The notes beneath the pieces are model-generated. The model saw only the letters and a list, made by a program, of their open reading frames with translations, was not told where the DNA came from and searched no databases. 6,189 bases of DNA, taken from assembly GCA_019090365.1 (NCBI GenBank), contig JAHRWC010000043.1:1-6189 (forward strand). Direction: 5' to 3'. The position numbers and the translations under genes were made by a program. Shown here piece after piece: positions 423 through 6,189 of the stretch (position 1 is its first letter; every line of letters begins with the position of its first letter). The stretch comes from Flavobacteriaceae bacterium. GTDB taxonomy: Bacteria > Bacteroidota > Bacteroidia > Flavobacteriales > Flavobacteriaceae.

Positions 423-440
423 AAATGATAATTATCATTT
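423..440. promoter_or_regulatory. FNR/Crp-family-like operator upstream of the Usp operon
   Basis: This is an 18-bp perfect palindrome, AAATGATAATTATCATTT, containing TGAT-AATT-ATCA at 426-437 with its centre at 431.5. The core matches the FNR half-sites (TTGAT-N4-ATCAA) in spacing and in the inner bases. The centre is 29.5 nt upstream of the -7 box at 461, which places it near -41.5, the class II activator position. Two other promoters in the window share this geometry. A Fur-like reading (GATAAT repeats) is possible for this copy alone. Confidence 0.65.
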
Positions 441-460
441 TTTTCAGAATTTTTGATGAC

Positions 461-468
461 TAACTTTG
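461..468 (+). promoter_or_regulatory. Bacteroidetes-type -7 box of the Usp operon
   Basis: TAACTTTG matches the Bacteroidetes -7 consensus TAnnTTTG at every fixed position. No TTTG is seen at the -33 position, where there is a T-run at 438-444, which fits an activator-dependent promoter. The predicted transcript start is near 473, giving a leader of about 18 nt before the ATG at 491. Confidence 0.65.
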
Positions 469-490
469 AGAATAGTCTAAATCTGGAAAA

Positions 491-1336
491 ATGAGAAAAC
501 TACTTATTCCTACCGATTTTTCAGAAAATGCATTAAATGCTATTAAAAATGCTGTGGTTCTTTTTAAATATGAACAATGCGAAATATTTTTAATGCATGC
601 ATATATTGATGAACTTTACGATGCAAAAAAAGATCATCCAGAAACTGAATTTGAAGCTTTAAAAAAAGAGATTCATACCACAGTTGAATTAAAAATGGAC
701 GTACTTCTTTCAGAAGTGAAAAAGTTTTCTCCTAACCCTAAACACAATTTCATTCCGTTACTTCTAAATGGTACACTCATCGATGAACTTAATGATATCG
801 TTGATCGAGAAAATATTGACTTATTATTAATGGGTACTTTAGGGCAAGCCAATCATAAAAACAAAACTTTTGGAAGCAATACAATTCAGGTTTTAAAATA
901 TGTTAAATGCCCTGTAATGGCAATACCAAAAGGGTTTTCTTCATATGCTGCCAAAAAATTATTATTTACTACAGATTTTCAATTACCCTATAAAAGAAGA
1001 GAGTTAAAACTTATAAGCACTTTAGCAAAAAGTTTTGTCGCAAAAATAGATTTCTTATATGTTTCAGATTTCAAAACACTTTCCCACAGACAAGAAGACA
1101 ATAAAGCATTTTTAGATAGTTGTTTTAGAGCTAATCTTACTGAATTTCATTCAAAACAAGATGATGACCTTACACATGCTATTAATAAATTTATAAATGA
1201 ACATGAAATTGACCTTTTAATAATGGTCAATTCAAGACATTCATTTCTAGAAAACATTCTCTATCAATCTACTATCGATGCTATTGGTCTACATATAAAA
1301 ATTCCTTTTTTAGTACTGCAAAACCTTAAGCGGTAA
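491..1336 (+). CDS. Universal stress protein, tandem two-domain UspA family
   Basis: This 281-residue cytoplasmic protein has two tandem Usp domains. Domain 1 (about residues 1-147) opens with KLLIPTDFSENALNAI and carries the complete nucleotide-binding motif G115-TL-G118-x9-G128-S129, followed by the typical closing strand CPVMAIP. Domain 2 (about 155-281) starts LLFTTDF. At the equivalent place it reads DLLIMVNSRHSFLENI, so the glycine motif is lost and this half is unlikely to bind ATP in the usual way. The ATG follows a short AT-rich leader with no clear Shine-Dalgarno sequence. It is the first gene of the operon, and the next Usp starts 22 bp after its stop. The FNR-like promoter suggests induction under low oxygen or redox stress. 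Family membership is clear from the motifs; the specific role is inferred. Confidence 0.93.
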   Translation: MRKLLIPTDFSENALNAIKNAVVLFKYEQCEIFLMHAYIDELYDAKKDHPETEFEALKKEIHTTVELKMDVLLSEVKKFSPNPKHNFIPLLLNGTLIDELNDIVDRENIDLLLMGTLGQANHKNKTFGSNTIQVLKYVKCPVMAIPKGFSSYAAKKLLFTTDFQLPYKRRELKLISTLAKSFVAKIDFLYVSDFKTLSHRQEDNKAFLDSCFRANLTEFHSKQDDDLTHAINKFINEHEIDLLIMVNSRHSFLENILYQSTIDAIGLHIKIPFLVLQNLKR

Positions 1337-1358
1337 TAAAAAATAAAACCTTTACGTC

Positions 1359-2210
1359 ATGAAAAGAAAAATACTTTTACCTACAGATTTTTCAGAGAAC
1401 TCTTGGAATGCAATTAAATATGCCATCGAATTATTTGAAAACGAAACATGTGATTTTTACCTCCTTAATGTTTTTTCTACCATAGGATTTGCTTCAGATA
1501 ATATTATGGTTCCTGAAATGGGGGAAATAGCTTTTAATTCAGTTAAGAAAAATTCAGAAAAAGGATTAGATAAATTCTTATATCGAATTTCTTTAAGGAA
1601 AGACAATCCTAATCATGAATTCTTTACAATTTCAATGTATGACACCTTGTTATATAGTATAAAAGAAGTTGTAGAAAAAAACACAATCGACCTCATCATT
1701 ATGGGCACCAAAGGCTCCTCTAATGTATTAACTGCATTTTTTGGCAGTAATACTGTAACAGTTATGGAGAAGGTTAGAAATTGTCCAGTAATTGCTATTC
1801 CTGAAAAAACAAATTTTAAAACTCCTTATGAAATTGTATTTCCAACAAGTTTAAAAACTCAATATAACAGTAACGAGCTTCAACAATTAGTAGATATAGC
1901 CTCACTAAATAATTCAACTATAAGAATATTACATATTCAAAAGGAAAATAGCTTAGATGAAGAACAATTAAACAATAAAAAAATATTGCGAGATAATTTT
2001 GGACCCTTAGAGCATAGTTTTCATTACATCCGCGATGTTGATTTATACACCAGCTTATATAAATTTATTGAAATAATGAACACAGACATGATTGTATTCA
2101 TTAATAAAGAACATAGTTTTTTCGAAAATATTTTCTCTAATCCTATGGTTAAGGAGTTAGGATATCATTCAAAAATTCCTGTGTTGACATTACATGATTT
2201 TAAAAAATAA
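1359..2210 (+). CDS. Universal stress protein, tandem two-domain UspA family
   Basis: This 283-residue protein is a divergent paralogue of the preceding gene. Domain 1 opens KILLPTDFSENSWNAIKYA and contains the full ATP-type motif G116-TK-G119-x9-G129-S130, then CPVIAIP. Domain 2 begins at about residue 158 (EIVFPTS) and ends DMIVFINKEHSFFENIFSNP...SKIPVLTLHD; the glycine loop is replaced by NKEHSFFEN, as in the paralogues. A Usp dimer or tandem pair normally acts in the cytoplasm as an ATP-binding stress or energy sensor; no partner is defined here. It lies 22 bp after the upstream Usp and 11 bp before the ATP-cone gene, with no promoter visible between them, so it is most likely co-transcribed from the promoter at 423-468. 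Confidence 0.93.
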   Translation: MKRKILLPTDFSENSWNAIKYAIELFENETCDFYLLNVFSTIGFASDNIMVPEMGEIAFNSVKKNSEKGLDKFLYRISLRKDNPNHEFFTISMYDTLLYSIKEVVEKNTIDLIIMGTKGSSNVLTAFFGSNTVTVMEKVRNCPVIAIPEKTNFKTPYEIVFPTSLKTQYNSNELQQLVDIASLNNSTIRILHIQKENSLDEEQLNNKKILRDNFGPLEHSFHYIRDVDLYTSLYKFIEIMNTDMIVFINKEHSFFENIFSNPMVKELGYHSKIPVLTLHDFKK

Positions 2211-2221
2211 ACAGCGCTAAT

Positions 2222-3079
2222 TTGAAACCTTTAGACAATAAAATAGAAATCGATGTTATAAAATCTTCAGGAAAGAGAGCACGATTTTCATTGAAGAAAT
2301 TAAGCAGTTCATTAAAACGAAGTGGAGCAAATGACAACACGGTTAAACAGATTTTAAATAAAGTAAGAGATGAATTATACCAAGGCATTTCTACAAAAGA
2401 AATCTATAACCGCGCCTTTGCGCTTTTAAAAAAAGAAAAATCTGTATTTGCTTCAAAATACAAATTAAAAAAAGCCATTTATGAGTTAGGCCCTACAGGT
2501 TTTCCTTTTGAACGATTTATTGGCGCTATGTTATTTTATTCAGGATACAGCATAAAAATAGGTCAAACCATTGAAGGAAATTGTGTAAATCATGAGGTTG
2601 ATGTAGTTGCAAATAAAAATGGTGTAGATATAATGGCTGAATGTAAATTTCATAGTGAAGAAGGAAGAAATTGCAATGTAAAAGTGCCTTTATACATACA
2701 TTCTAGATATCAAGATATTCAAGAACAAAGAAATAATAACCCAAAAACAAATGGAATTCCAACAGAATGTTGGGTTGTTACCAATACGCGATTTTCAAAA
2801 GATGCAATCACCTACGGAGAGTGTTCTGGTTTATATATGTTAAGTTGGGATTATCCCAAAAGTAATAGTTTACGAAAACGAATAGATCGATTAGGATTAT
2901 ATCCAATTACGGTTTCAACAGTTTTAACTCAACGAGAAAAACAATTTCTAATTAGTCGAGATATCGTTTTATGCAGACAGTTAATAAATGATTTATTTTA
3001 CCTAGATCACTTAGGTATTTCAGAAGAAAGGAAAAAAATAATTCTTAATGAAATAAATATGTTATGTCATGAAAAATGA
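2222..3079 (+). CDS. ATP-cone domain fused to a PD-(D/E)xK (Mrr-like) nuclease domain
   Basis: The protein has 285 residues. Residues about 8-90 look like an ATP-cone, the nucleotide-binding regulatory domain known from ribonucleotide reductases and NrdR: IDVIKSSGKRARFSLKKL, then helices ending FASKYKLKKAIYELGP. Residues about 95-210 resemble a restriction-endonuclease-like fold: E97 (FERFIG), then HEVD127, then E140-C-K142 (AECKFH), which gives the D...ExK active-site pattern. The last 70 or so residues are helical and unassigned. The start is TTG at 2222-2224; an in-frame stop lies at 2201-2203, no ATG lies between, and the next TTG (residue 24) would cut into the ATP-cone. The 3' end overlaps the next gene by 11 bp, suggesting translational coupling. 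An ATP- or dATP-regulated nuclease is an inference; there is no adjacent methylase, so it is not an ordinary restriction system. Confidence 0.8.
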   Translation: MKPLDNKIEIDVIKSSGKRARFSLKKLSSSLKRSGANDNTVKQILNKVRDELYQGISTKEIYNRAFALLKKEKSVFASKYKLKKAIYELGPTGFPFERFIGAMLFYSGYSIKIGQTIEGNCVNHEVDVVANKNGVDIMAECKFHSEEGRNCNVKVPLYIHSRYQDIQEQRNNNPKTNGIPTECWVVTNTRFSKDAITYGECSGLYMLSWDYPKSNSLRKRIDRLGLYPITVSTVLTQREKQFLISRDIVLCRQLINDLFYLDHLGISEERKKIILNEINMLCHEK

Positions 3080-4445
3080 AGTGATAAAAGTTCATTTTTT
3101 AGGTGCCTCTAGAACAGTAACAGGTTCTAAATTTCTAATAGAGACCTCTCAGAAAAATATTCTTATTGATTGTGGAATGTTTCAAGGTTTAAAAGAATTA
3201 CGTGAAAAAAACTGGGAAAATATCCCTTTTGATGTTTCCACAATAGATCATGTTTTATTAACCCATGGTCATCTAGATCATACCGGTTATTTACCTCGAC
3301 TCGTTCAACAAGGATTTAAAGGGAGTATTGAAGGAACATCGCCAACTTTAGCTATTGCAAAAATTATTTTAAAAGATAGTGGTAAAATTCATGAAGAGGA
3401 TGCAAAAAGAGCAAACAAAGAAGGGTATTCAAAACATGAACCTGCCCTCCCTTTTTATACGATAAAGGAAGCTGAACAAACCATTCGATTTTTTAACAAT
3501 AGAGAAAAGAACGTTTGGCATCAACTGGATAAAGATATTAAATATCGCTTGCGATATAATGGGCATATTATTGGTTCTACTTTTATTGAATTAGATCTCT
3601 TCGGAAAAATATTCGTTTTTTCTGGTGATATAGGAAGACAAAATGATTTATTACTAGCACCTCCTTTGCGTCCAAAATGGGCTGATTATTTATTTTTAGA
3701 AAGCACTTATGGCAATAAATTACACCCAAAAGAAGATATTGAAGATAAAATAGTAGCGCTTGTAAATACAACACTTAAAAACAGAGGGACTTTAATAATT
3801 CCTTCATTTGCAGTAGAAAGATTACAATCGTTAATGTATTTGTTATGGCAATTATATAAGAAGAATAAAATTCCAAATATTCCTGTTTTTGTTGATAGTC
3901 CTATGGGGAATAATGTACTCTCCGTATTCGAACAATATTCTAATTGGCACAAATTACCAGCTAATGAATTTGCTGCAATGAGTCGTTGGACAAACATCAT
4001 AACTTCATACAAAGAAACGTGGGAAACCATTGATAACCCACGGCCAAAAATAGTAATTGCAGGTAGTGGAATGGTAACAGGAGGAAGAGTATTAACCTAT
4101 CTACAACAACTCATTGATGAGGCTTCAACAAATATATTATTGGTAGGATATCAGGCAGAAGGAACTAGAGGAAGACAATTATTAGAAGGCGCTCATGAAA
4201 TTAAATTTTATGGCAAATACTATCCTGTTAATGCACAAGTACATCAAATAGAAAGTTTGTCTGCACATGCAGATCAAAAAGAAATTCTTGAGTGGATGGG
4301 AGGTATTAAAAATGTAATAGAAACTGTATTTTTAGTACATGGAGAACCTTCTTCAATAAATACATTACGCGTAAAAATTCAGGATGTTTACCATTGTAAA
4401 GTGACTGTACCAAAATTATATGATGTGCTTAAAATTCATCTTTAA
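3069..4445 (+). CDS. MBL-fold/beta-CASP RNA-processing exonuclease-like protein
   Basis: This 458-residue protein has the full set of metallo-beta-lactamase and beta-CASP motifs expected of a cytoplasmic zinc-dependent RNase (CPSF-73/YSH1-like family). They are H66-x-H68-x-D70-H71 (THGHLDHTGYLP), H166 (NGHIIGS), D187 (SGDIGR), motif A E211 (LESTYG), motif B H400 (SAHAD) and motif C H424 (LVHGE). The beta-CASP insert spans roughly residues 225-365, including the conserved PSFAVER and AGSGMVTGGR segments. The length is normal for the short bacterial members, which lack the extra C-terminal domain of RNase J. Catalytic residues appear intact, so an active enzyme is likely; the RNA substrate is unknown. 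The ATG at 3069 lies inside the end of the ATP-cone nuclease gene (11-bp overlap). It is the last gene of the operon, with no strong terminator after it. Confidence 0.92.
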   Translation: MKNEVIKVHFLGASRTVTGSKFLIETSQKNILIDCGMFQGLKELREKNWENIPFDVSTIDHVLLTHGHLDHTGYLPRLVQQGFKGSIEGTSPTLAIAKIILKDSGKIHEEDAKRANKEGYSKHEPALPFYTIKEAEQTIRFFNNREKNVWHQLDKDIKYRLRYNGHIIGSTFIELDLFGKIFVFSGDIGRQNDLLLAPPLRPKWADYLFLESTYGNKLHPKEDIEDKIVALVNTTLKNRGTLIIPSFAVERLQSLMYLLWQLYKKNKIPNIPVFVDSPMGNNVLSVFEQYSNWHKLPANEFAAMSRWTNIITSYKETWETIDNPRPKIVIAGSGMVTGGRVLTYLQQLIDEASTNILLVGYQAEGTRGRQLLEGAHEIKFYGKYYPVNAQVHQIESLSAHADQKEILEWMGGIKNVIETVFLVHGEPSSINTLRVKIQDVYHCKVTVPKLYDVLKIHL

Positions 4446-4472
4446 TCACTAATTATCAATACTCTAAAAATC

Positions 4473-4484
4473 TGATTTTTATCA
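4473..4484. promoter_or_regulatory. FNR/Crp-family-like operator upstream of the lipoprotein gene
   Basis: TGAT-TTTT-ATCA is a perfect core palindrome for the half-sites, centred at 4478.5. It lies 29.5 nt upstream of the -7-like box at 4508, the same distance as at the Usp operon and the minus-strand Usp gene. Unlike the site at 423-440 it is not extended beyond the core (C on the left, T on the right). Confidence 0.55.
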
Positions 4485-4499
4485 TTTTATAAAAATGAT
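4481..4499. repeat. AT-rich inverted repeat in the lipoprotein promoter
   Basis: ATCATTTT-ATA-AAAATGAT is an 8-bp perfect inverted repeat with a 3-nt spacer. Its left arm overlaps the right half-site of the FNR-like operator, and it covers about -39 to -21 of the predicted promoter. It could be a second protein-binding site over the -33 region or a chance consequence of composition. It is too AT-rich and lacks the T-tract expected of a terminator for the upstream operon. Confidence 0.4.
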
Positions 4500-4507
4500 T
4501 TAACTCT

Positions 4508-4515
4508 TATCTTAG
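4508..4515 (+). promoter_or_regulatory. -7-like box of the lipoprotein gene
   Basis: TATCTTAG fits TAnnTTTG at five of six fixed positions (A for T at the seventh base). The main support is its position: its first T is 29.5 nt from the operator centre, exactly as in the other two promoters. The predicted transcript start is near 4520, leaving a leader of about 15 nt before the ATG. Confidence 0.5.
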
Positions 4516-4534
4516 ATAATTATATCTATTCGTC

Positions 4535-5167
4535 ATGAAAAATTTAATCCTCAGTAGTCTTGTTTTATTATTAATTAGTTGTTCTTCTAGTAAAATAGTT
4601 GAGCAATATAAGAGCCCCGATAATCCAACATTTGAAGCCAATAAAGTATTAATTATTGGTATGGCTCAAAATATAGAATCTAGAAGAATGTTTGAAAAAG
4701 AACTTGCTGTAGCCCTAGAAAAAAAGGATGTTATTGCTGTAAAAAGCGTCGACTTTTTTGAAAACTCATTTGCTTCAGATAAAAAATCTGAAACAGATTT
4801 GAATGCTATTGAAAAACAACTTACCGATGCAGGATTTGATGCAATCATACTTTCAAAAGTGATAAGTTCAGAAAATAAAGTCACCTTAGTAAAAGCGATT
4901 AAAAGTTTTGATGAATCTTTCAATAACTTTAGAGATGATTACTATAAAAGTCAGGATATTTATTTTAACGATGACTATCTACAAGAATCAAAAACTTACC
5001 ATACAGAAACTACTTTGTATTGCATTTGTCCAACGAAAGAACGTGAGTTAATTTGGAAAGGCACAATTGATATTGTAAACCCAGTTAAAGCAAAAACTTC
5101 GATAGGTGATTATGTTTCTTTATTGTTGAAAGAATTTGAAAAACAGCAGCTCTTAATTGTAGATTAA
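4535..5167 (+). CDS. Small hypothetical lipoprotein
   Basis: The product is 210 residues and I do not recognise a named family. The N-terminus has a lysine at position 2, a hydrophobic core (LILSSLVLLLIS) and a lipobox ending at C16 (LLISC), so it is very likely a lipoprotein exported by Sec and processed by signal peptidase II. The residues after the cysteine (SSSK) show no acidic surface-export signal, so a periplasm-facing location is the better guess. The mature part starts with a strand-like segment (KVLIIGMA), then helices (ESRRMFEKELAVALEKK), GFDAIILSKVI, a tyrosine/aspartate-rich stretch at 134-148, and a strand TTLYCICPTKERELIWKG, a pattern common in small envelope lipoproteins. It has its own FNR-like promoter and ends 3 bp from the converging Usp gene. 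Shared regulation suggests an envelope role in the same stress response. Confidence 0.85.
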   Translation: MKNLILSSLVLLLISCSSSKIVEQYKSPDNPTFEANKVLIIGMAQNIESRRMFEKELAVALEKKDVIAVKSVDFFENSFASDKKSETDLNAIEKQLTDAGFDAIILSKVISSENKVTLVKAIKSFDESFNNFRDDYYKSQDIYFNDDYLQESKTYHTETTLYCICPTKERELIWKGTIDIVNPVKAKTSIGDYVSLLLKEFEKQQLLIVD

Positions 5168-5170
5168 AAG

Positions 5171-6007
5171 CTATTTATGTAAAATCAACAATGGAACTTT
5201 TGTGCCGTAATCTATTTTAGCCATTTCTGATCCATACACAAAACGTTTTACAAAAGATTCTTTTTCAAAAAAGGAAGTATGCATATCCACATCAATTAAT
5301 TGCACAAAAGAATCAACAGCTATAGGAGTTGATACACCTACAATTTTATAAAACTCTGTGTTAATATTTTTAAATTTCTCCTTTAATTGTTTCTGAAATT
5401 TATTTTCAATTTCAACATCATATTCTTTATCATTAATTTCTAATACTTTCAATAAAGCATGCTGATGATTGATGATTTCTAAGAGTGGTTTTAATTTTTT
5501 TATATCAAAAGACTCATGATTATGAATGGTAAATAAAACTATTTCAAATTGATTTAAGGTATAACTTTCAGGAATCACTAATAATGGACAATCTACATTT
5601 CTAATAACATTTAAAGTATGACTTCCAAAAACTACTTCTTTAGCTCCTGTTGCACCATTACTACCCATAATAATTAAATCAATATCATTTGCCTTGATCG
5701 ATTGATTAATCGCATCTATAAATACATCAAAATTGATTATAGAAATAAAGGCATACTTTTCTGAAGCGTATTTTTTTTGATAAAAATCTACTAATTTGTG
5801 AAGTTCTTGTCGGTTATCTTTTAAGACTGAATCATATACAGTATTTCCATTGGAAGCTGTATAAAAATCATCTGTAGTGTATTCTGATACTTTTTTAGTA
5901 TTTAAAAAATAAAAATTACAAGGGTTTCCTTTAAAAAACTCTAATGCATAATTAATTGCATTTTTTGAATTCTCTGAAAAATCGGTAGGCAATAATATGT
6001 TTTTCAT
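5171..6007 (-). CDS. Universal stress protein, tandem two-domain UspA family (minus strand)
   Basis: This 278-residue protein is the fourth Usp in the window. Domain 1 opens KNILLPTDFSENSKNAINYA and contains the complete nucleotide-binding motif G115-SN-G118-x9-G128-S129, then CPLLVIP. Domain 2 begins at about residue 155 (EIVLFTIHNHES), is more divergent than in the plus-strand paralogues, and reads DVDMHTSFFEKESFVKRFVYGSEM where the glycine loop would be; it ends VPLLILHK. It is cytoplasmic and probably binds ATP through the first domain only. The ATG (complement of 6005-6007) follows a predicted 15-nt leader. It is transcribed alone from the promoter at 6027-6073, downstream of a tRNA gene separated by a terminator, and converges on the lipoprotein gene with a 3-bp gap. 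Confidence 0.93.
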   Translation of the reverse strand: MKNILLPTDFSENSKNAINYALEFFKGNPCNFYFLNTKKVSEYTTDDFYTASNGNTVYDSVLKDNRQELHKLVDFYQKKYASEKYAFISIINFDVFIDAINQSIKANDIDLIIMGSNGATGAKEVVFGSHTLNVIRNVDCPLLVIPESYTLNQFEIVLFTIHNHESFDIKKLKPLLEIINHQHALLKVLEINDKEYDVEIENKFQKQLKEKFKNINTEFYKIVGVSTPIAVDSFVQLIDVDMHTSFFEKESFVKRFVYGSEMAKIDYGTKVPLLILHK

Positions 6008-6026
6008 TATCAGACTATTATACTAA

Positions 6027-6034
6027 TAAAATTA
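6027..6034 (-). promoter_or_regulatory. -7-like box of the minus-strand Usp gene
   Basis: Read on the minus strand this is TAATTTTA, fitting TAnnTTTG at five of six fixed positions (final A instead of G). It starts 29.5 nt from the operator centre at 6063.5. The predicted transcript start is near 6022. No TTTG is seen at -33, as expected for an activator-dependent promoter. Confidence 0.5.
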
Positions 6035-6053
6035 GTAAATTTTTTAATATGTC

Positions 6054-6073
6054 TTTATGATAATCATCATAAA
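6054..6073. promoter_or_regulatory. FNR/Crp-family-like operator upstream of the minus-strand Usp gene
   Basis: TTTATGAT-AATC-ATCATAAA has 8-bp perfect arms around a 4-nt spacer and contains TGAT-AATC-ATCA at 6058-6069. Its half-sites and spacing match the operator at 423-440. It sits 7 bp from the T-tract of the tRNA terminator, so the promoter begins almost directly after transcription of the tRNA ends. Confidence 0.65.
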
Positions 6074-6080
6074 ATTGCAT

Positions 6081-6113
6081 AAAAAAAGCCTCTCTATAAA
6101 GAGAAGCTTTTTT
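6081..6113 (-). terminator. Rho-independent terminator of tRNA-Leu
   Basis: On the minus strand the hairpin reads AAGCTTCTC, a 6-nt loop (TTTATA), then GAGAGGCTT, followed by a run of T (complement of 6087-6081). The stem has one G-T wobble on the minus strand but a C-A mismatch when read on the plus strand, so it is better suited to minus-strand transcripts. Flanking A and T runs extend the stem. It starts right at the CCA end of the tRNA and separates the tRNA from the Usp promoter. Confidence 0.8.
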
Positions 6114-6189
6114 GGTGCGGGCGGGGAGACTCGAACTCCCACGCCGTGAAGCACTAGATCCTAAGTCTAGCATGTCTACCAATTCCATC
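6113..6189 (-). tRNA. tRNA-Leu (anticodon UAG), 5' end outside window
   Basis: Read on the minus strand, the window edge falls at about tRNA position 9. The D arm is ATG/CAT with loop GAATTGGTAGA. The anticodon stem CTAGA/TCTAG encloses loop CTTAGGA with anticodon TAG at 6163-6161 (reads CUA, leucine). A long class II variable arm follows at 6153-6141, as expected for tRNA-Leu. The T arm is GGGAG-TTCGAGT-CTCCC. The 3' acceptor strand CGCCCGC (6123-6117) is followed by discriminator A (6116) and an encoded CCA (6115-6113). About eight bases of the 5' acceptor side are missing because the window ends. Confidence 0.93.

What the first reader, a model, noticed from the sequence alone, without database searches (positions are those of the whole stretch)
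423..6073. Three promoters share a TGAT-N4-ATCA operator at an identical distance from the -7 box
Seen: perfect TGAT-N4-ATCA palindromes at 426-437, 4473-4484 and 6058-6069, one in each intergenic region. In each, the dyad centre is exactly 29.5 nt upstream of the first T of a TAnnTTTG-like box (461, 4508, and 6034 on the minus strand). My manual scan found no other perfect copy in the window. Known: FNR-family activators bind TTGAT-N4-ATCAA and activate class II promoters from about -41.5; taking the first T of the -7 box as -12 gives precisely that. Inferred: a Crp/Fnr-family activator controls the Usp/nuclease/RNase operon, the lipoprotein and the minus-strand Usp as one regulon, likely linked to low oxygen or redox state.
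Basis: partly seen in the sequence, partly recalled or inferred. Interest (0 to 1): 0.75.

Follow-up and report, generated by a model that had tools for sequence, protein, structure and literature searches.

The report
Shared low-oxygen switch before stress genes
Three neighbouring stress-gene promoters in one bacterium carry the same short mirror-image DNA sequence at exactly the same distance from the transcription start signal, a layout that recurs in many related bacteria before genes linked to life at low oxygen, so the three are likely switched on together when oxygen runs short.

Summary
In 97 related loci plus the window, 169 of 180 oriented intergenic palindromes have TAnnTT at exactly +29.5, with 1 each at +28.5 and +30.5. 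With the site relaxed to TGAY-N4-RTCA, the same spacing precedes hemN in 28 of 41, the cbb3 gene ccoI in 31 of 39 (box nAnnTTTR) and the Usp orthologue in 15 of 15. With the -7 box at -12 to -5 (PMC9723704) the centre is at -41.5: a class II Crp/Fnr promoter, likely for low oxygen. Two corrections: the outer bases are not those of FNR's TTGAT-N4-ATCAA, and the best candidate regulator is not a plain FNR. Related islands encode a PAS kinase resembling the FixL haem sensor and a response regulator fused to a Crp/Fnr DNA-binding domain. In this genome only the start of the kinase gene is assembled, at a contig end; the regulator gene was not found and may lie in the gap before the window. An Fnr-like protein is also present; genomes with either regulator alone keep the box. 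Binding, oxygen response and phosphotransfer are untested.

The parts
426..437 (.). operator 1, TGATAATTATCA
   Evidence: perfect palindrome; intergenic, 59 nt from the Usp start codon
461..468 (+). -7 box 1, TAACTTTG; predicted transcript start near 473
   Evidence: 23 nt after the palindrome; the box spans -12 to -5 in F. psychrophilum (PMC9723704, passages)
491..1336 (+). Usp (first gene of the operon)
   Evidence: Pfam Usp PF00582, 84.9 bits; best matches at 44-55% identity in 17 of the 59 other family genomes searched
1359..2210 (+). second Usp
   Evidence: Pfam Usp, 70.8 bits
2222..3079 (+). ATP-cone protein, probable nuclease
   Evidence: Pfam ATP-cone over its cut-off; AF1548-like_C below its cut-off
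3069..4445 (+). metallo-beta-lactamase/beta-CASP RNase-like protein
   Evidence: Pfam Lactamase_B, Beta-Casp and RMMBL
4473..4484 (.). operator 2, TGATTTTTATCA
   Evidence: perfect palindrome
4508..4515 (+). -7 box 2, TATCTTAG; predicted transcript start near 4520
   Evidence: 23 nt after the palindrome
4535..5167 (+). lipoprotein-like protein of unknown function (cluster 4)
   Evidence: ORF, no Pfam match; members of the cluster in 52 of the 98 sources
6058..6069 (.). operator 3, TGATAATCATCA
   Evidence: perfect palindrome
6027..6034 (-). -7 box 3, TAATTTTA on the minus strand; predicted transcript start near 6022
   Evidence: 23 nt after the palindrome
5171..6007 (-). minus-strand Usp
   Evidence: Pfam Usp, 71.1 bits
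1..384 (+). C-terminal part of an upstream gene, cut by the contig end; clusters with the Usp proteins
   Evidence: 5'-open ORF, cluster 0 (Usp) by BLASTP, no Pfam match; the window starts at base 1 of contig C449

Best explanation
The three promoters share a TGAT-N4-ATCA dyad centred 29.5 nt upstream of the -7 box, and this dyad is likely the operator of a Crp/Fnr-type activator that would switch on the stress genes when oxygen falls. Shown: the dyad, the spacing, and their conservation before Usp, Hsp20, hemN, ccoI and cytochrome c genes in related genomes. Inferred: a dimer binds at -41.5 and recruits RNA polymerase at class II promoters. Most likely mechanism (inferred): a PAS histidine kinase resembling the FixL haem sensor would autophosphorylate at low oxygen and pass phosphate to a response regulator in which a receiver domain is fused to a Crp/Fnr DNA-binding module; the phosphorylated regulator would then bind the box. 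This would be the FixL-FixJ-FixK relay shortened by one step. An Fnr-like protein, also encoded in this genome, would bind the same box. In this genome the start of the kinase gene is found at the end of contig C260; the regulator gene is not in the assembly and is predicted to lie in the gap before the window.
For: Spacing: 169 of 180 oriented intergenic palindromes have TAnnTT at +29.5, against 1 at +28.5 and 1 at +30.5; hemN 28 of 41 (TAnnTT), ccoI 31 of 39 (nAnnTTTR) and Usp orthologue 15 of 15 at spacing 23, with 5 or fewer at any other spacing from 12 to 35. Of 265 palindromes in 1.06 Mb, 234 are noncoding although 11% of the bases are. Targets: 107 Usp, 37 Hsp20, 12 of an unknown family, 3 cytochrome c, 2 S30AE ribosome-hibernation genes and others among 181 ORFs. 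Regulator: REC + cNMP_binding + HTH_Crp_2 protein, cluster 6, in 40 of 98 sources; the kinase cluster 9 stands directly before it in 22 of its 23 loci. It is present in 16 of the 17 other genomes with the Usp orthologue against 8 of 42 without (P = 9e-8, not corrected for kinship or linkage). Kinase PAS: the best solved match of this genome's copy is a FixL (1d06, E 1e-14); 12 of the 17 matched chains are named FixL, DosP or haem PAS, 13 with yddU, which I recall to be DosP. The FixL His column is H in 25 of 31 and the Arg column R in 22 of 31 kinases. Recognition helix: ATE[ST]xxR in 58 of 82 full-length REC-Crp proteins, the 12 printed exceptions keeping E and R (A[PS]E[ST] or SSET), and in 29 of 30 Fnr-like proteins. 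The box persists with either regulator alone: hemN Fnr only 12 of 17, REC-Crp only 7 of 9, both 9 of 13, neither 0 of 2; ccoI Fnr only 14 of 17, REC-Crp only 10 of 11, both 8 of 11 (my reading of the rows).
Against: The REC-Crp gene was not found in this genome's assembly; its place in the gap rests on synteny. One genome (G008) keeps the Usp operon and box with Fnr alone, so the fusion is not required. Six of 31 kinases have no His in the column, 2 of them by gaps. In +-1.5 kb around REC-Crp a perfect-palindrome composite was seen in 13 of 30 family loci (L136-L165), 5 of 8 further family loci (L240-L247) and 2 of 20 loci L248-L267, of which 18 come from other orders of the class. In this genome hemN over the cut-off is missing, ccoS-ccoN is one base off, and the other composites do not point to oxygen. 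Another Crp/Fnr protein of this genome, L005, has the ExxSR helix pattern of FNR. Related loci are not independent samples. No haem, phosphotransfer, DNA binding or oxygen response has been measured.
Confidence: 0.66

Rival explanations
1. The Fnr-like protein of the ccoI locus (L001 type) alone is the activator in this genome, and the kinase/REC-Crp pair acts elsewhere or is lost.
For: The gene is in this assembly beside a ccoI start; Fnr-only genomes keep the box at hemN 12 of 17, ccoI 14 of 17 and the Usp operon of G008; it carries 3 of the 4 FNR cluster cysteines.
Against: 7 of the 17 other genomes with the Usp orthologue lack it but have REC-Crp, and the box persists there in 5 of 5 with a located start codon (2 not located); its presence is not associated with the Usp orthologue (10 of 17 against 28 of 42, P = 0.57).
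Confidence: 0.24
2. The dyads are operators of a Crp/Fnr-type protein that answers another signal, such as nitric oxide, sulfur or general energy stress, through one of the other Crp/Fnr proteins of this genome (L002-L005).
For: Five Crp/Fnr proteins are in the assembly; L005 has the ExxSR helix pattern of FNR; Usp genes are general stress genes (recalled).
Against: The same box stands before hemN, ccoI and cytochrome c in relatives; hemN, cbb3 and UspA genes are in the FNR core regulon of alphaproteobacteria (PMC2908626, passages). L002-L004 lack the E of the helix. Distribution of L002-L005 types was not tested against the box.
Confidence: 0.09
3. The palindromes are a chance product of AT-rich intergenic DNA.
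For: With one mismatch the palindrome alone is not enriched in the window.
Against: Composites 3 against a mean of 0.008 in shuffles; one dominant spacing in many promoters.
Confidence: 0.01

Closest known systems
FNR/FixK core regulon of alphaproteobacteria (PMC2908626, passages read)
   Same: Fnr-type sites before a P-type ATPase, cytochrome oxidase, UspA and hemN genes; FNR and FixK sites called virtually identical; displacement of FNR by FixK in Caulobacter proposed there
   Different: another phylum and -7 box; outer bases of the site differ; the candidate regulator is a receiver-Crp/Fnr fusion; Hsp20, nuclease and RNase genes are included
FixL-FixJ-FixK cascade (PMC4999443 and PMC5234846, passages read)
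   Same: FixL-like PAS kinase; a receiver protein; a Crp/Fnr-type DNA-binding module at the end of the relay
   Different: receiver and Crp/Fnr module are one protein, with no LuxR-type FixJ output and no separate fixK step
low-oxygen-activated (lxa) locus of Burkholderia cenocepacia and the DosR regulon (PMC6127331, passages read)
   Same: cluster of several Usp genes with a heat shock protein, raised at low oxygen and linked to anoxic persistence
   Different: other lineages and regulators; low-oxygen induction is not shown for the island here
Crp/Fnr protein of known structure 2gau (best solved match of the Fnr-like protein)
   Same: Crp/Fnr fold, related sequence over residues 17-226
   Different: the alignment does not cover the N-terminal cysteine pair, and the ATES helix core is not conserved in it

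Membership tests
Class II Crp/Fnr-type promoter | dyad centred near -41.5 (recalled) | tested here: met
   29.5 nt from the first T of the box in 3 of 3 window promoters and 169 of 180 related sites; box at -12 to -5 from PMC9723704
Class II Crp/Fnr-type promoter | activator binding and activation in vivo | not testable with these tools
   needs footprinting, reporters and mutants
Canonical FNR box TTGAT-N4-ATCAA | inner TGAT and ATCA half-sites | tested here: met
   for the window; half-sites vary as TGAY/RTCA at hemN and ccoI
Canonical FNR box TTGAT-N4-ATCAA | outer T and A | tested here: not met
   upstream outer base C 74%, A 16%, T 7%, G 3%; downstream T 96%, G 4%, A 0% of 180 sites
FNR regulator | four cluster cysteines | tested here: not met
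   the Fnr-like protein aligns 3 of the 4 cysteines of solved FNR (which four is recalled); another cysteine at 53 might serve
FixL haem sensor kinase | PAS with the haem-ligand His and the Arg of FixL (roles recalled) | tested here: met
   both aligned in this genome's kinase; H in 25 of 31, R in 22 of 31 kinases
FixL haem sensor kinase | haem and oxygen binding | not testable with these tools
   needs purified protein
FixJ response regulator | receiver plus LuxR-type HTH | tested here: not met
   receiver plus cNMP_binding plus HTH_Crp_2 in the 2 proteins scanned and in the precomputed domains of the 120 listed relatives
FixK | stand-alone Crp/Fnr protein expressed under FixJ control | tested here: not met
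   the Crp/Fnr module is fused to the receiver
DosR/lxa-type hypoxia stress regulon | Usp and Hsp20 genes induced at low oxygen | tested here: inconclusive
   gene content met; induction not testable here

The most novel reading that the evidence does not exclude
In Flavobacteriaceae a one-step oxygen relay has evolved: a FixL-like haem kinase drives a response regulator whose output domain is itself an FNR, and in genomes that have no Fnr-like protein (11 of 60 sampled) it has taken over the low-oxygen regulon, from cbb3 oxidase and hemN to a Usp/Hsp20/nuclease/RNase dormancy island.
Probability: 0.55. Interest if true: 0.75.

Novelty: new variant of a known kind. Interest (0 to 1): 0.62.

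Why it matters
Low-oxygen control in flavobacteria seems little described: a transcript-start map of F. psychrophilum reports cbb3 and haem genes rising under oxygen limitation, and its main text has no word beginning with Fnr or Crp (PMC9723704). If right, this gives an operator, a fixed promoter geometry, a target list and two candidate regulators, each testable by a mutant. It would also show how a two-component system can take over an FNR regulon by fusing its receiver to the FNR DNA-binding module.

Tried and rejected
Rejected: chance; a canonical FNR site (outer bases); the idea that the REC-Crp fusion is always needed (G008 has the box with Fnr only). A gene by gene control (176 other ORFs, of which 15 reach 7 or 8 palindrome matches with a full box) was not usable because the loci hold other regulon genes and alternative starts; I replaced it by the shifted-spacing control. 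ARAGORN found no tRNA in the window. Perfect palindromes are commoner in genomes with REC-Crp only: 11 of 17 hemN and ccoI composites against 10 of 43 in Fnr genomes (tallied by hand; P = 0.006; an earlier test used a wrong total of 45). Suggestive, not corrected for kinship. Structure prediction was not run. Literature searches aimed at a receiver-Crp/Fnr fusion or an Fnr-type regulon in Bacteroidetes listed no paper whose title or abstract start describes it; only an open-licence library was searched, and lists were capped.

Rows dropped before counts: one search used 180 of 218 oriented rows (38 with two candidate genes left out); one search used 41 of 42 hemN loci, 39 of 42 ccoI loci and 15 of 17 Usp loci (start codon not located in the rest); 3 of the 39 ccoI rows (L180, L184, L347) look like wrongly picked ORFs and count as misses; one search examined 64 of 114 palindromes of this genome. 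The helix comparison selected proteins by part of the motif, so I recounted without that.

Odds: on re-checking I saw that L005 has an FNR-like ExxSR helix; for that I moved 0.02 and 0.01 from the best explanation and the first rival and set the second rival to 0.09.
Full report
What was checked. The window (6189 bases, from base 1 of contig C449 of a 2.55 Mb, 452-contig draft genome of 88% completeness) holds three perfect TGAT-N4-ATCA palindromes, at 426, 4473 and 6058, and no others. Each is followed, 23 nt on, by TAnnTT. Shuffling the window 1000 times gave 0.008 such composites on average and never more than 1. Only the first box is a full TAnnTTTG.

Where it recurs. A scan of genome contigs with the ATP-cone protein kept 80 loci (the best of 213); their titles name Flavobacteriaceae, Flavobacteriales or genera I know as flavobacterial, one being labelled Algicola. 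A family search with the first Usp gave 17 further loci at 44-55% identity. In these 97 loci plus the window, 234 of 265 palindromes lie in the 11% of bases that are noncoding. Of 180 that point to a single gene within 130 nt, 169 have TAnnTT at +29.5; +28.5 and +30.5 have 1 each; the next most frequent offset is +6.5 with 22, next to the palindrome itself. The column frequencies give roughly aaCTGAT-AWWT-ATCATTkT, 19 nt, TAnnTTTR.

What is under it. Clustering the genes behind the composite gave 107 Usp, 37 Hsp20, 12 of an unknown family of about 150 residues, 4 of the lipoprotein family of the window, 4 of a 135-residue family, 3 cytochrome c, 2 ribosome-hibernation genes and single cases including an OsmC-like, a pyridoxamine-oxidase-like and a P-type ATPase gene (the last named by eye), 181 in all; 42 composites had no ORF start in range. 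The nuclease and RNase genes further down the operon almost never have one of their own (1 of 82 and 0 of 80). To test the low-oxygen idea, hemN and the cbb3 copper ATPase ccoI were fetched from the same 60 family genomes: all 42 hemN genes over the family cut-off and 42 ccoI regions. At spacing 23, TGAY-N4-RTCA with the box precedes hemN in 28 of 41, ccoI in 31 of 39 and the Usp orthologue in 15 of 15; no other spacing from 12 to 35 exceeds 5. At ccoI the box is nAnnTTTR: only 1 of 39 has TAnnTT.

This genome. Of 64 palindromes examined (of 114), 18 are noncoding and 9 of these have the box; none of 46 coding ones has. Besides the three in the window, the six others precede a 134-residue gene next to the kinase and five genes I could not tie to oxygen. 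ccoI has TGATAATAGTCA with AACCTTTG at the exact spacing, ccoS-ccoN a perfect site one base off, and no hemN over the cut-off was found.

Geometry. A transcript-start map of F. psychrophilum puts TAnnTTTG at -12 to -5 (PMC9723704, passages). The dyad centre is then at -41.5, the class II position of Crp/Fnr activators (recalled). The 3' flank TTG/TTT of the palindrome falls at -35 to -33, where Bacteroidetes promoters have their -33 element (recalled), so operator and -33 element abut.

Which regulator. After a kinase and before the Usp genes of related islands lies a 350-residue protein with receiver, cNMP-binding and HTH_Crp_2 domains, seen in 40 of the 98 sources, many of which are cut before that point. 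It occurs in 24 of 60 family genomes and 44 of 296 genomes of the phylum (two of these match mainly over the receiver), and has at least 7954 relatives in a protein database; the named ones among the 120 listed are called response regulator, transcriptional regulator, CheY-like or CRP-like protein. Its helix reads ATE[ST]xxR in 58 of 82 full-length copies, the exceptions printed keeping E and R; an Fnr-like protein has it in 29 of 30. The Fnr-like protein is found in 39 of 60 genomes including this one, and a CcoI-like start lies near it in 26 of the 30 loci examined, not counting two doubtful ones. Against solved FNR it keeps three of four cluster cysteines and the E and R of the recognition helix but has I for S before the R. 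That S contacts the outer T of TTGAT in FNR (recalled), which would fit the loss of the outer T here.

Either regulator alone goes with the box. By genome class, hemN has the composite in 12 of 17 with Fnr only, 7 of 9 with REC-Crp only, 9 of 13 with both and 0 of 2 with neither; ccoI in 14 of 17, 10 of 11 and 8 of 11 (read by hand). The Usp orthologue itself goes with REC-Crp (16 of 17 against 8 of 42, P = 9e-8) and not with Fnr (10 of 17 against 28 of 42, P = 0.57); kinship and linkage are not corrected for. Beyond the family the link is weak: 2 of 20 loci L248-L267 show a perfect composite near REC-Crp.

The sensor. The start of the kinase gene of this genome lies at the end of contig C260 (L232:1551-2351), divergent from a 134-residue gene that has its own composite. 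That gene is 53% identical to its counterpart in L102; in L064 and L102 this family, the kinase and REC-Crp stand in this order before the island. So the window most likely follows after a gap that holds the rest of the kinase, REC-Crp and the start of the first Usp. The smallest contig I saw was 3524 bases, so a short piece may have been dropped from the assembly (inference). The PAS domain matches a FixL best (1d06, E 1e-14); 12 of 17 matched chains are named FixL, DosP or haem PAS. The His and Arg of FixL are aligned in it; across 31 kinases the His column is H in 25 and the Arg column R in 22.

Mechanism. Most likely a FixL-like kinase and a receiver-Crp/Fnr fusion activate class II promoters at low oxygen, with an Fnr-like protein reading the same box. 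The promoter architecture is shown by sequence; binding, signal and phosphotransfer are inferred. Fnr alone in this genome is the main rival; a role of L005, whose helix has the FNR pattern, is not excluded.

Comparison. The gene set overlaps the FNR core regulon of alphaproteobacteria, where UspA, hemN, a P-type ATPase and cytochrome oxidase genes appear and where FixK is proposed to have displaced FNR in Caulobacter (PMC2908626, passages), and the Usp/heat-shock content of the Burkholderia lxa locus and DosR regulon (PMC6127331, passages). What differs is the phylum, the outer bases of the site and the fusion regulator. It is a new variant of a known kind.

Noticed in passing
L179-L208 and L340-L351, upstream of ccoI: ccoI promoters keep the operator at the exact spacing but mostly replace the T at -12 of the -7 box by A, G or C (only 1 of 39 has TAnnTT), which might make them more dependent on the activator.
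   Followed up: partly
L168 (contig C97:1382-1393): In this genome the ccoS-ccoN genes (named by eye) have CTGATAATTATCAT with TACTTTTG at 30.5 instead of 29.5.
   Followed up: partly
window 6082-6189: A terminator-like hairpin with a T run, then what looks by eye like a minus-strand tRNA-Leu cut by the window end; ARAGORN reports none.
   Followed up: no
L081:4407-4850, L114:5486-5893, L232:1037-1441: Three small families under the box (about 147, 135 and 134 residues); the members scanned for each family have no Pfam match (for the third family the relative in L102 was scanned).
   Followed up: no
L242:213, L164:295, L165:823 and 858: In L242 the composite precedes the kinase gene itself, which suggests autoregulation; in L164 and L165 it precedes other genes beside further REC-Crp copies.
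   Followed up: no
hemN and ccoI sites: Half-sites TGAC are common in genomes with the Fnr-like protein and rarer in genomes with REC-Crp only, which may reflect different site preferences.
   Followed up: partly
window 2222: The ATP-cone protein has a TTG as its first start codon, 11 nt after the Usp stop; its true start is uncertain.
   Followed up: no
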